A DNA stretch of 64,000 bases, from assembly GCA_000720535.1 (NCBI GenBank), contig JOAZ01000008.1, forward strand, positions 1 to 64,000, read 5' to 3'. Shown in pieces: positions 28,512 through 64,000 of this stretch (within the stretch, counting starts at the first letter, position 1; the number at the start of each line of letters is the position of its first letter). The position numbers and the translations under genes were made by a program. This DNA comes from Streptomyces halstedii (lineage in GTDB: Bacteria > Actinomycetota > Actinomycetes > Streptomycetales > Streptomycetaceae). Under the pieces are notes generated by a model. That model did no database searches. It was not told the origin of the DNA and saw only the letters and a list, made by a program, of their open reading frames with translations.

Positions 28512-29564
28512 ATGCTCGACGCGTTGACGGCGGACAGGCCCACATTGTCGACGCCCGGCGTCTCTCGGCGACCGGACACCGAGCGGGTTCCCCTCGCGTT
28601 ACTGGTGGCGTCGGATTCCCCGCGTACCGCGGGGGAGGACGCCGAGCACATCGAGACCCTCGCCGAGACGCAGACCCCGCTGCCGCCCATCGTGGTGCAC
28701 CGGCCGACGATGCGGATCGTCGACGGCCTGCACCGGACGCAGGCGGCCGCGCTGCGGGGCGAGGAGACCATCGAGGTCCGGTACGTGGACGGCTCGGTCG
28801 AGGACGCCTTCGTCCTGGCCGTCCGGCTCAACGCCGAACACGGGATGCCGCTGTCCCGCCGGGACCGGACGGCGGCGGCCGAACGCATCATCGGCAGCCA
28901 CCCCGACTGGTCGGACCGCCGGATCGCCGAGGTGACGGGCCTGGCGCCGGGCACGGTGGCGGCGCTGCGCAAGCGGTCAACCGTTCGGATCGAGCAGTTG
29001 AACACCCGGACCGGACGCGACGGACGGTCCCGGCCGGTCAACAGTGCCGCGGGCCGGCGCCGTGCGAGCCAGGTGATCGCGGAACGCCCGGGTGCCTCGT
29101 TGCGCGAGATCGCCCAGGAGGCGGGCATCGCGCTGGCGACGGCCCGCGACGTCCGCCTGCGCGTCCGCGCGGGCGAGGACCCGGTACCGGCCAGACTGCG
29201 GGAGGCGCCGGAGGGCGACGGCGCCTCGCCGGGCGGGAGTCCGGTACGCAGACCGACCCCGGTGGACGGCGGGGGCCGGGGTGGCAGGACACGGCCGGAG
29301 CCCTCGGCGATCACGGGCGCCGGACAGTTCGTGAACCTGCGCAAGGATCCCTCGCTGCGCTTCTCCGAGGCGGGCCGGATGCTCCTGCAACTCCTGTCCA
29401 CGGGCGGGTTCGACGAGGAGCGGTGGAGCTGGCTGATGGACGCGGTACCCGCGCACCGCTACACGGACGTCGCACGGGTCGCCAGGCAGTGCGGCGAGCA
29501 ATGGCTGGCCTTCGCCGAGGAGTTGGAAGGGGGCGGTGGCGTCCGCGCGAGCCGGGCCGTCTGA
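28512..29564 (+). CDS. StrR-like pathway activator (ParB-fold plus helix-turn-helix), TTA codon
   Basis: The protein has 350 residues from the ATG at 28512, chosen because AGGAGG lies five bases upstream. The ParB-type domain (about 15-110) has ETQTPLPPIVVHRPTMRIVD, GLHRTQAAALRG and FVLAVRLNAEHGMPLSRRDR. A helix-turn-helix follows: DRRIAEVTGLAPGTVAALRK. This is the pattern of StrR, NovG, Bbr and KasT, which are specific activators of antibiotic clusters. Codon 30 is TTA (28599-28601), so translation should depend on the bldA tRNA. A StrR-type operator at 45383-45413 upstream of the reductase gene is its likely target. It sits at the left edge of the hybrid cluster beside two other regulators. 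Confidence 0.88.
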   Translation: MLDALTADRPTLSTPGVSRRPDTERVPLALLVASDSPRTAGEDAEHIETLAETQTPLPPIVVHRPTMRIVDGLHRTQAAALRGEETIEVRYVDGSVEDAFVLAVRLNAEHGMPLSRRDRTAAAERIIGSHPDWSDRRIAEVTGLAPGTVAALRKRSTVRIEQLNTRTGRDGRSRPVNSAAGRRRASQVIAERPGASLREIAQEAGIALATARDVRLRVRAGEDPVPARLREAPEGDGASPGGSPVRRPTPVDGGGRGGRTRPEPSAITGAGQFVNLRKDPSLRFSEAGRMLLQLLSTGGFDEERWSWLMDAVPAHRYTDVARVARQCGEQWLAFAEELEGGGGVRASRAV

Positions 29565-29590
29565 CCGGCGGGCCCGGGGCGCGACGGAGT

Positions 29591-29625
29591 CCGGCGGGCG
29601 CGCCGCGCGCTCGCGTGCCCGCCGG
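29591..29625. terminator. Hairpin between the StrR-like and SARP genes
   Basis: CCGGCGGGC (29591-29599) and GCCCGCCGG (29617-29625) are perfect 9-base arms in the 69-base convergent gap. It is probably bidirectional. Confidence 0.6.
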
Positions 29626-29633
29626 TGCTGTCC

Positions 29634-62400: not shown

Positions 62401-62789
62401 CCGAACCGCGCCCGGACCGCCCCGGATCCGGGACCCGGTTCGTCGCGCCCGAGAACGCCACCGAGCACGCGCTCGCCGGTCTGTGGCGCACCCTGCTGGG
62501 GGCCGAGCGCGTCGGGATGCGGGACAACTTCTTCGACCTCGGCGGCCACTCCCTGCTGATGGCCGAGTTCCGTACCGAACTGGCGGCCACGCTCGGCCGC
62601 GAACTGACCATGGTCGAGCTGTTCCAGCACCCCACCGTCGAGTCGCTCGCCGCCTACCTGGGCGGCACCCCCGACGACCTTGAGAACGTCACGCACGGCG
62701 CCAGGCAGCGCGCACAGAACCGACGACAGTCCCGGAACCGGCGGCAGCAGGCAGCCGAACGCCGGGCTTCCTCCCGCGGAGACAGGTGA
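59463..62789 (+). CDS. NRPS module C-A(Ser)-T
   Basis: The protein has 1108 residues starting at a GTG that overlaps the previous stop (GTGA). C about 35-465 (HHLVSDRWS at 163); A about 490-970 ([27 protein letters not shown]); T with GGHS at Ser1030. Aligned to GrsA, the pocket residues read DVWHLSLIDK, identical to the standard serine code. The C domain would join the polyketide acyl chain to serine. The C-terminal tail (about 1075-1108) is rich in Arg and Gln and may be a docking segment for the next PKS. Neighbouring modules are coupled, so it acts between two PKS proteins. Confidence 0.93.
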   Translation: MTDDLAQRLAALGPEERARFDALMAERASEDTFPLAVLQRGTWFLEQLRPRNPGYIVPGAVRIEGTLDTGLLRAAVAEVVRRHEALRTTFQLRDGAPVQVVHPHLDIDVPETDLSGPAHSDADRRTWIDEVLATPFDIDTGPLLRVRLLRTGPDRSALVVAMHHLVSDRWSLAVFLSELSELYEAFAAGLPSPLPELPIQYGDFSAWQHQQLDNGSWQEDLAYWREHLAGAPPVLDLPTDRPRPAVQGFNGGSVPVDLPAELVGPLAALAGRHGATPYMALLAVFQILLHRYTGQEDVVVGVPTALRGRAEVEPLIGYFVNTLPIRADLSGDPAFETALTRVRDACLGAYGHQEIPFELIVADLNTARDLSRPPVYQVSFSYGREPVPPRAMGGARLERLPVRSEGARFDLELQAFDTDGGVTGWFEYDRDLFDEATVVRLAGHFRRLVEQAVARPGSPIGSLDLFDEARLLATTGAWNATGRQWPDGLAHECVERRVRDTPDAEAVRFEGASLTYAELNGRANRLARLLRTHGVGRDVLVGLALERSVELVVALLAVLKAGGAYVPLDTDLPSGRLADIAEDAEPSVVLTHGALGERLPALGCPVLRTEDLAAELAGLSPDDLGVEVDGEDLAYVIFTSGSTGRPKGVMNVHAALRNRLLWMQDAYGLDGTDRVLQKTPFSFDVSVWEFLWPLMTGATLVVARPGGHRDCGYLADTVEAEKITTVHFVPSMLQLYLAEPPAKSAGLRRVLCSGEELTRSLHDRFLGLHRAELHNLYGPTEAAIDVSAWHCAAGDGSGPVPLGRPIANTRLYVLDRHDRPLPPGIPGELCIGGRGLARGYLKRPELTAERFTEDPFVPGARVYRTGDLARYRADGALEFLGRLDHQVKLRGQRLELGEIEAVLTRHDAVREAVVTAREHAPGDIRLAAYVTVTGDTAPAPGALAGHLRGYLPEYMVPASFTVLDALPLTPSGKTDRKALPEPRPDRPGSGTRFVAPENATEHALAGLWRTLLGAERVGMRDNFFDLGGHSLLMAEFRTELAATLGRELTMVELFQHPTVESLAAYLGGTPDDLENVTHGARQRAQNRRQSRNRRQQAAERRASSRGDR

Positions 62790-62794
62790 TCCAC

Positions 62795-64000
62795 GTGCCA
62801 CAGCCAGACCATGACCAGGACCTCGACCGCGTCGCCATCATCGGCATGGCCGGCCGCTTTCCCGGCGCCGACGACGTGGGGACCTTCTGGACCAACCTCG
62901 AACAGGGCCGCGAGGGCATCAGCCACTACTCCGACGAGGAGCTGGCCGGCTCGGGCACCGACCCGGCGGTGCTGGCCCAGGACGGATACGTCAAGGCCAA
63001 GGGCGCGCTGGAGGGCGCCGACCTCTTCGACGAGGGGTTCTTCGGCTACAGCCCCCGCGAGGCCGAACTCCTCGACCCCCAGCACCGGGTCTTCCTCGAA
63101 TGCGCCTGGCACGCCCTGGAGTCCGCCGGGATCGACCCGGACCGCTTCGAGGGCCGTATCGGCGTCTTCGCCGGCAACGGCCTCAACACCTACCTGCTGT
63201 TCAACCTGATGAGGAACCAGCGGGTGCTGGACTCCTCCGGCATGTACCAGGTGATGCTCGCCTCGGACAAGGACTTCCTGGCCACCCGCACCGCGTACAA
63301 ACTCGGCCTGAGGGGCCCGGCGGTCACCGTCCAGACCGCCTGCTCCACCTCGCTGACCGCCGTGCACCTGGCCTGCCAGAGCCTCCTCAACGGGGAATGC
63401 GACATCGCCCTGGCCGGCGGCGTGTCCGTCAGCTCCCCGCTGCACGGCGGCTACGCCTACGAATCCGGCGGCATCCTCTCCCCGGACGGCACCTGCCGCG
63501 CCTTCGACGCGGACGCCGAGGGCACCGTGCCCGGCAACGGGGCGGGACTCGTCGTGCTGCGCCGCCTCGCCGACGCCCGTACCGAGGGCGACACCGTGGA
63601 CGCGGTGGTGCTCGCCAGCGCCGTCAACAACGACGGTTCCCTCAAAGCCGGTTACACCGCACCCAGCGTGGACGGGCAGGCCGAGGTCGTCGCCGAGGCG
63701 CTGGCCCTGGCCGACGTCGATCCCGCCACCGTCGGCTTCGTGGAGACCCACGGCACCGGCACCCCCCTCGGCGACCCCATCGAGATCGCCGCCCTCACCC
63801 GCGCCCACCGCGCGGGCACGGACGAGCGGGGCTACTGCGCCATCGGCTCGGTCAAGAGCAACGTCGGCCACCTCGACGCGGCCGCCGGGGTCACCGGCCT
63901 GATCAAGGCCGCCCTCGCCCTCAAGCACGAGGCCATCCCGCCGACCCTGCGCTGCGAGCGGCCCAACCCGGGCCTGGAGCTGGACACCAGCCCCTTCTAC
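62795..64000 (+). CDS. PKS protein, N-terminal KS of a post-NRPS module (cut by window edge)
   Basis: The frame is open from the GTG at 62795 to the window end (402 codons, no stop). After a short docking-like start (VPQPDHDQDLDR) a ketosynthase begins: VAIIGMAGRFPGADDVGTFW. The active-site motif is QTACSTSLTAVHLACQSL with Cys183, and the histidines are in VETHGTGT (His319) and SVKSNVGHLDAAAG. TACSTSL and this opening are typical of KS domains that accept aminoacyl chains from an NRPS. It follows the serine module after a 5-base gap. It should elongate the seryl chain. Domains after the KS lie outside the window. Confidence 0.92.
   Translation, partial: MPQPDHDQDLDRVAIIGMAGRFPGADDVGTFWTNLEQGREGISHYSDEELAGSGTDPAVLAQDGYVKAKGALEGADLFDEGFFGYSPREAELLDPQHRVFLECAWHALESAGIDPDRFEGRIGVFAGNGLNTYLLFNLMRNQRVLDSSGMYQVMLASDKDFLATRTAYKLGLRGPAVTVQTACSTSLTAVHLACQSLLNGECDIALAGGVSVSSPLHGGYAYESGGILSPDGTCRAFDADAEGTVPGNGAGLVVLRRLADARTEGDTVDAVVLASAVNNDGSLKAGYTAPSVDGQAEVVAEALALADVDPATVGFVETHGTGTPLGDPIEIAALTRAHRAGTDERGYCAIGSVKSNVGHLDAAAGVTGLIKAALALKHEAIPPTLRCERPNPGLELDTSPFY

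What the first reader, a model, noticed from the sequence alone, without database searches (positions are those of the whole stretch)
28512..64000. Hybrid FAAL/PKS/NRPS cluster whose module order suggests a new branched lipo(depsi)peptide
Seen: FAAL-ACP-KS-AT-DH-ER-KR-ACP, KS-AT-ACP, C-A(Ser)-T and KS..., with a divergent C-A(Gly-like)-T-C-A(Val-like)-T-E-C, P450, MbtH, exporter and ccr. Known: in rakicidin/BE-43547-type compounds, as I remember them, a lipid polyketide is followed by Ser plus a PKS extension (4-amido-2,4-pentadienoate), then Gly and another residue. Inferred: the window encodes a relative with a valine-like D residue and an ethyl branch. Against a simple match: the module before serine has no KR, so the lactone hydroxyl is not accounted for.
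Basis: partly seen in the sequence, partly recalled or inferred. Interest (0 to 1): 0.85.

Follow-up and report, generated by a model that had tools for sequence, protein, structure and literature searches.

The report
Rakicidin-type lipopeptide cluster with detached ketoreductase
This actinomycete gene cluster most likely makes a ring-shaped lipopeptide of the known rakicidin/vinylamycin/microtermolide family, and a step that seemed to be missing from its assembly line is probably done by a separate small enzyme encoded just beyond the end of the window.

Summary
Read past the window's right end, the assembly line is FAAL-ACP-KS-AT-DH-ER-KR-ACP | KS-AT-ACP | C-A(Ser)-T | KS-AT-KR-DH-ACP; the divergent NRPS is C-A(Gly)-T-C-A(Val-like)-T-E-C. 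The last PKS has the unusual KR-before-DH order of RakEF, a marker of 4-amido-2,4-pentadienoate (APD) cyclolipodepsipeptides. The kind is not new: Komaki et al. 2016 (PMC5075396) describe 18 valine-type clusters, 14 without KR in module 2 and eight with the NRPS on the other strand. A FabG-type reductase gene starts 50 bp after the last PKS gene (contig 68599-69345). Among 23 clusters compared it is in 14 of 14 with a KR-less, AT-intact module 2, 0 of 4 with a KR there, and 0 of 3 BE-43547-type; 2 fragments could not be scored. Its best PDB match, by a small margin over FabGs, is SiaM, a trans-acting PKS ketoreductase. I infer that it reduces the beta-ketone in trans, giving the lactone hydroxyl, as AntM does in antimycin. 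The 14 clusters are one clade that also carries CCR (13 of 14) and an E domain (14 of 14), so a role in extender supply is not excluded. The product may be microtermolide-like.

The parts
31885..33153 (-). MFS exporter
   Evidence: Pfam MFS_3/MFS_1; homologue in 12 of 14 clade clusters (not seen in L038, L039)
33111..33311 (-). MbtH-like protein
   Evidence: Pfam MbtH
33343..34533 (-). Cytochrome P450, probably hydroxylates the product (site unknown)
   Evidence: Pfam p450; one P450 seen in 13 of 14 clade clusters
34669..43968 (-). NRPS: C-A(Gly)-T-C-A(Val-like)-T-E-C(terminal); release by the terminal C inferred; start codon chosen by eye within a longer ORF (to 44205)
   Evidence: Pfam; codes; HHxxxD in all four condensation-type domains; terminal C closest to those of rak-like, BE-type and S. 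rubellomurinus clusters
45598..46944 (+). Crotonyl-CoA carboxylase/reductase (alkylmalonyl-CoA supply)
   Evidence: NCBIfam TIGR01751 588.2 bits, cut-off 378.55; PDB crotonyl CCRs (771-785 bits) score far above octenoyl CCR (503) and AntE (238)
47459..56179 (+). PKS: FAAL-ACP-KS-AT-DH-ER-KR-ACP (loading and module 1)
   Evidence: Pfam; AT motif FASH
56176..59466 (+). PKS module 2: KS-AT-ACP, no KR; AT motif SAGH
   Evidence: Pfam; no KR motif between AT and ACP
59463..62789 (+). NRPS module 3: C-A(Ser)-T
   Evidence: Pfam; code
62786..64000 (+). PKS module 4, RakEF-like KS-AT-KR-DH-ACP; continues to contig position 68548, followed outside the window by SDR 68599-69345, ferredoxin-like gene 69393-69620 (by eye), type II TE about 69703-70485, KAS III about 70688-71662

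Best explanation
The cluster makes a 15-membered APD cyclolipodepsipeptide. FAAL activates a fatty acid; module 1 extends it, probably with methylmalonate, and reduces it fully; module 2 adds an alkylmalonyl unit (ethyl most likely) supplied by CCR and leaves a beta-ketone; the FabG-like SDR encoded next to module 4 reduces that ketone in trans; Ser is added, and the RakEF-like KS-AT-KR-DH module turns it into the APD unit; the divergent NRPS adds Gly and a Val-like residue, epimerises the latter, and its terminal C domain closes the lactone onto the SDR-made hydroxyl; the P450 adds an oxygen. Shown: domains, order and signatures, presence/absence across relatives. Inferred: the SDR's substrate, release by the terminal C, branch length, P450 site, the product.
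For: Domain content. RakEF domain order, and 46-84% identity in the DH region to 22 other clusters, among them M. chalcea (rak-like) and S. rubellomurinus. SDR in the cluster in 14 of 14 with KR-less, AT-intact module 2; 0 of 4 with KR in module 2; 0 of 3 BE-type; 2 fragments not scored. SDR is FabG-like: passes subfamily model NF009466 (262.3, cut-off 222), fails the acetoacetyl-CoA reductase and PhaB cut-offs; best PDB hit SiaM (212 bits; next FabGs 205-206; acetoacetyl-CoA reductases 184 and less), a trans-acting modular-PKS ketoreductase (passages of PMC4046962). Around 20 of its 41 best outside relatives (20 kb each), 17 of 20 have KS-like hits and 0 of 20 a CCR hit. KAS III, a partner expected for extender supply, is seen in only 5 of 14. 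Precedent: AntD (no KR) + AntM + AntE (passages of PMC3869250). Microtermolide A, C23H37N3O6, has 7 unsaturations, which the standard APD lactone skeleton uses up, leaving no ketone.
Against: The 14 clusters form one clade (100/100), so the association may be one event; CCR (13 of 14), the E domain (14 of 14) and the S[AP]GH AT motif (14 of 14) go with it. A FabG-like enzyme could instead serve alkylmalonyl supply. SDR distances track the PKS/NRPS domains less tightly (r 0.56-0.74) than these track each other (0.81-0.91). SDR falls short of the FabG equivalog cut-offs too (TIGR01830 284.5 against 297.75, others by more), and SiaM's lead over FabGs is small. No enzyme assay, knockout or compound. 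That MspMP-M5 is the microtermolide strain MspM5 rests on the similar name; I saw no structure of microtermolide.
Confidence: 0.7

Rival explanations
1. The SDR makes the extender unit: with KAS III and CCR it reduces acetoacetyl (or a longer 3-oxoacyl) thioester on the way to alkylmalonyl-CoA. The module 2 ketone is reduced by a FabG from primary metabolism or by the RakEF KR.
For: A cluster CCR (84-90% identical) accompanies SDR in 13 of 14 clusters; the genomes of the 4 KR-containing clusters show only 74-76% CCRs, not seen in the cluster stretches read. KAS III is near SDR in the window's own cluster and 4 others.
Against: KAS III not seen in 9 of 14 while SDR is in all. L039 has SDR but no CCR above 75% in its draft genome, though its contig ends 1.67 kb beyond FAAL. 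SDR fails the curated acetoacetyl-CoA reductase cut-offs. Outside relatives mostly lie by KS-like genes and, in 20 neighbourhoods, never by CCR.
Confidence: 0.2
2. The beta-ketone is kept: the product is an alpha-alkyl beta-ketoamide, linear or closed through another hydroxyl, for example one installed by the P450.
For: Module 2 has no KR; a P450 is seen in 13 of 14 clusters.
Against: A conserved FabG-like reductase in 14 of 14 clusters and a conserved terminal C domain; the microtermolide A formula leaves no room for a ketone on the standard skeleton, if that strain link holds.
Confidence: 0.08

Closest known systems
KR-less valine-type APD clusters of Komaki et al. 2016, Fig. 4b (PMC5075396; parts 2 and 3 of 4 of the text read)
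   Same: RakEF-like module, Val at module 6, no KR in module 2, NRPS on the complementary strand in eight strains (their text); MspMP-M5, CNH099 and vitaminophila are in both sets
   Different: No difference in the features their text gives (figures not held). In the parts read, the stand-alone reductase, CCR and the missing hydroxyl are not discussed.
Rakicidin (rak) clusters; here M. chalcea L040 and M. solifontis L042 as rak-like
   Same: Same order from FAAL to RakEF, Gly module, terminal C
   Different: KR in module 2, AT motif TSSH, methyltransferase in the Gly module (shown for L040), no E, CCR or SDR in the stretches read; rakicidins carry Asn instead of Val (papers)
Vinylamycin-assigned cluster of S. 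rubellomurinus ATCC 31215 (L048)
   Same: FAAL line, Ser/RakEF, Gly and Val-like codes (DAYFWGVTFK), terminal C
   Different: KR in module 2, TASH AT motif, no E, CCR or SDR on its 42 kb contig, which begins 2.1 kb before FAAL
BE-43547-type clusters (G101, L045, L046)
   Same: RakEF-like module, terminal C
   Different: Extra Gly module before Ser, KR only in module 1, module 2 AT serine lost, no SDR
Antimycin AntD/AntE/AntM and SIA7248 SiaM
   Same: KR-less PKS modules completed by a discrete ketoreductase; CCR supplies alkylmalonyl (antimycin)
   Different: Other backbones; antimycin is released by a TE domain

Membership tests
APD cyclolipodepsipeptide cluster (rak/vinylamycin/BE-43547 family) | Ser NRPS module followed by a PKS with KR before DH | tested here: met
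APD cyclolipodepsipeptide cluster (rak/vinylamycin/BE-43547 family) | FAAL-loaded lipid line before Ser | tested here: met
APD cyclolipodepsipeptide cluster (rak/vinylamycin/BE-43547 family) | Gly module plus one more residue, ending in a terminal C domain and no cis TE | tested here: met
APD cyclolipodepsipeptide cluster (rak/vinylamycin/BE-43547 family) | Beta-hydroxyl for the lactone | tested here: inconclusive
   No KR in module 2; conserved SDR proposed to act in trans
APD cyclolipodepsipeptide cluster (rak/vinylamycin/BE-43547 family) | APD-containing product | not testable with these tools
   needs LC-MS/NMR
Rakicidin cluster proper | Methyltransferase in the Gly module and Asn-type last module | tested here: not met
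   no methyltransferase domain; Val-like code
BE-43547 cluster proper | Gly module before Ser | tested here: not met
Vinylamycin cluster as assigned in S. rubellomurinus | KR in module 2 | tested here: not met
Komaki Fig. 4b KR-less subgroup | Val-like last module, no KR in module 2, RakEF in one clade with named members | tested here: met
Trans-acting PKS ketoreductase (SiaM/AntM type) | FabG-like SDR with the YxxxK motif, encoded with a KR-less module | tested here: met
Trans-acting PKS ketoreductase (SiaM/AntM type) | Reduces the ACP-bound beta-ketone of that module | not testable with these tools
   needs knockout or in vitro assay

The most novel reading that the evidence does not exclude
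The whole KR-less clade moved the lactone-forming ketoreduction out of the assembly line to a stand-alone reductase, together with a switch to CCR-supplied alkylmalonyl and a D-configured last residue. It would be an antimycin-like logic arisen independently in the APD family, giving alpha-alkyl, D-residue APD lactones, with microtermolide as a known member and most others unknown.
Probability: 0.6. Interest if true: 0.5.

Novelty: new member of a known kind. Interest (0 to 1): 0.42.

Why it matters
APD compounds are reported as hypoxia-selective cytotoxins (PMC12916061, PMC13198255; passages read). The 2016 survey left 14 KR-less clusters without an explanation for the ring hydroxyl in the parts I read. 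A named candidate gene makes that gap directly testable by one deletion, offers a way to test a link between MspMP-M5 and microtermolide, and lets products of the clade be predicted (alpha-alkyl, beta-oxy, D-Val-type).

Tried and rejected
Considered and rejected: (1) that the missing KR shows an unrelated product: the RakEF domain order and 46-84% identity to APD clusters speak against it. (2) That the RakEF module is followed by more modules: no condensation domain between 60.9 and 186 kb of the contig and no ORF over 984 aa after 68548 in the GC3-filtered list to 115 kb; most of those ORFs were not scanned and no KS search of the contig was made. (3) That KAS III marks the SDR as an extender-supply enzyme: KAS III is seen in only 5 of 14 clusters. 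(4) Using the AT motif to fix branch length: AGH/PGH motifs are reported for butylmalonyl (AAGH, PMC6273641) and 2-(2-methylbutyl)malonyl (VPGH, PMC3943440), and an ethylmalonyl motif is given as VASH (PMC6090053), so ethyl rests mainly on the CCR's closeness to crotonyl CCRs. (5) A Fisher test on 14/0 against 0/4 is not used as evidence, since the 14 rows are one clade.

Rows dropped before counts: L041 and L043 are contig fragments without module 2 and are in no KR count (one search printed a line for L041, but it is the RakEF KS, not module 2). L044's contig ends about 5 kb behind RakEF; its SDR absence rests on the genome-wide search. The tree lacked L048 because its KR hit fell under my score limit, and restored it. 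In one search my KS motif pattern found nothing for L031, L032 and L044, so KS integrity is not claimed for them. The tenth letter of the Ser code is an artefact of my script. For partly fetched clusters, the lines were superseded. In one search, only 4 of the 16 genomes with a match have a full-length match of 46% or more; the others are at 38% or less. The 20 SDR neighbourhoods were chosen by me from the 41 best outside matches, leaving out some at contig ends and some others; 'KS-like' there means a best-tile hit of more than 50 bits to one of this cluster's KS domains, at 27% identity or more.
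Full report
What is there. Reading on along the contig shows that the last PKS gene runs from 62786 to 68548 and is KS-AT-KR-DH-ACP. It has no cis thioesterase. Next come a FabG-like SDR (68599-69345), a ferredoxin-like gene (69393-69620, named by eye, no NCBIfam hit), a type II thioesterase and a KAS III gene. No condensation domain lies between 60.9 and 186 kb, and no ORF over 984 aa follows in the filtered list to 115 kb.

What it is. KR before DH is the unusual order reported for RakEF, whose DH is proposed also to remove the serine hydroxyl to form the APD unit; labelling showed APD comes from serine and malonate (PMC5073741, passages). 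A search with the DH region finds it in few places: 4 of 392 sampled genomes of the genus have a full-length match at 46% identity or more, the window's own included, and a scan of the GTDB genome collection returned 19 loci. They include Micromonospora chalcea, S. rubellomurinus ATCC 31215, Streptomyces sp. MspMP-M5, CNH099 and Wenjunlia (Streptomyces) vitaminophila. Komaki et al. 2016 (PMC5075396, parts 2 and 3 of 4 read) name the last four; they describe 18 valine-type clusters, 14 without KR in module 2 and eight with the NRPS on the complementary strand. The window's cluster matches that subgroup in the features their text gives.

The missing hydroxyl. I compared 23 clusters: the window's own, G184, G047, G101 and the 19 loci. 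Module 2 is KR-less with an intact AT serine in 14; it has a KR in 4 (L040, L042, L044, L048); it is KR-less with the AT serine replaced by glycine in 3 BE-43547-type clusters (G101, L045, L046); and it is not visible in 2 fragments (L041, L043). The SDR is in the cluster in 14 of 14, 0 of 4 and 0 of 3 respectively; L044's cluster is cut off by its contig end, but its genome has no SDR match at E of 1e-60 or better. Genome-wide at that limit the only further hits in the 22 relatives' genomes are 48-58% relatives at other places. In vitaminophila the SDR has moved behind the NRPS but is kept. The SDR passes the curated FabG subfamily model NF009466 and fails the acetoacetyl-CoA reductase and PhaB cut-offs, though it also falls short of the FabG equivalog cut-offs. 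Its best PDB match is SiaM (E 9e-62, 212 bits, next FabGs 205-206), described as a trans-acting ketoreductase that reduces intermediates on several modules of a PKS (PMC4046962, passages). Of 20 neighbourhoods chosen from its 41 best outside relatives (56-61% identical), 17 hold KS-like hits and none a CCR hit. The antimycin pathway pairs a KR-less KS-AT-ACP-TE module with a discrete ketoreductase AntM and the CCR AntE (PMC3869250, passages).

Limits of that argument. The 14 clusters are one side of a fully supported branch (100/100), so loss of KR and gain of SDR may be one event. The same branch carries the cluster CCR (13 of 14), the S[AP]GH AT motif (14 of 14) and the E domain (14 of 14); the KR-containing and BE-type clusters have none of these where the place is visible. 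The SDR could therefore belong with CCR in extender supply. Against this: KAS III is seen in only 5 of 14, and L039 keeps the SDR without a CCR above 75% identity in its draft genome, though its contig ends 1.67 kb beyond FAAL. Distances of SDR correlate with those of the PKS/NRPS domains at r 0.56-0.74, less than these among themselves (0.81-0.91), which does not tell the two readings apart.

Branch and residues. The CCR is close to crotonyl-CoA CCRs (771-785 bits) and far from octenoyl-CoA CCR (503) and AntE (238), which favours ethylmalonyl. AGH/PGH AT motifs are also reported for butyl- and 2-(2-methylbutyl)malonyl (PMC6273641, PMC3943440, passages), so a longer branch is possible. A-domain signatures read Ser, Gly and a Val-like aliphatic residue (positions recalled). 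E and terminal C domains keep HHxxxD. The terminal C is shared with rak-like, BE-type and S. rubellomurinus clusters (37-42% identity), which supports a family-wide release role; that it closes the lactone is inference.

Likely product. Streptomyces sp. MspMP-M5 (L030) is among the closest relatives in the tree. A review lists microtermolide A, C23H37N3O6, from Streptomyces sp. MspM5 of a Microtermes termite (PMC11611000, table passage); NCBI taxonomy holds MspMP-M5 and MspMP-M9 under that beginning and no MspM5, so identity of the strains is a guess. If true, and if microtermolide A has the standard skeleton, its seven unsaturations are used by four carbonyls, two APD double bonds and one ring, leaving no ketone and one extra oxygen, as expected from a reduced module 2 and a P450. 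MspMP-M5 differs from the window in having only a 76-residue FAAL-like stretch before module 2 and a separate PKS downstream, so the lipid parts of the two products should differ.

Novelty. The cluster is a new member, or possibly one of the listed members, of a published subgroup. In the searches made and the passages read I saw no proposal of a trans-acting ketoreductase for APD clusters. The boholamide and microtermolide papers are not held, and the BE-43547 cluster paper I did not ask for, so such a proposal may exist there.

Noticed in passing
G101, L045, L046 (module 2 of BE-43547-type clusters); L044: The AT of module 2 has GHGxG in place of GHSxG in all three BE-type clusters, which also lack KR there; S. 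sp. JJ36 (L044) has GHGCG but keeps a KR. Module 2 of BE-type lines may be a non-elongating pass-through.
   Followed up: partly
L030 / G392:C52 (MspMP-M5): The FAAL-module 1 gene is missing except for a 76-residue FAAL-like stretch before module 2; a separate PKS with KS-AT-KS-AT-DH-KR-KS hits, running off the contig end, lies downstream.
   Followed up: partly
14 clade clusters, e.g. window 33343-34533: Where seen (13 of 14), one P450 per cluster, of two kinds: a type beside the NRPS (79-87% identical to the window's) or a type beside SDR and ferredoxin (62-65%).
   Followed up: partly
OWN, L030, L031, L032, L036: The divergent (minus-strand) NRPS is found in 5 of 14 clade clusters, which group together in the RakEF tree (100/97), consistent with one inversion.
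   Followed up: partly
window 19623-23849 (-): A separate single-module NRPS, C-A-T-TE, of unknown product.
   Followed up: no
window 28251-31487: A regulator block: a SARP/BTAD regulator (29634-30455, -), a TetR-type regulator (30762-31487, +) and an ORF that looks ParB/StrR-like by eye (28251-29564, +; not scanned).
   Followed up: no
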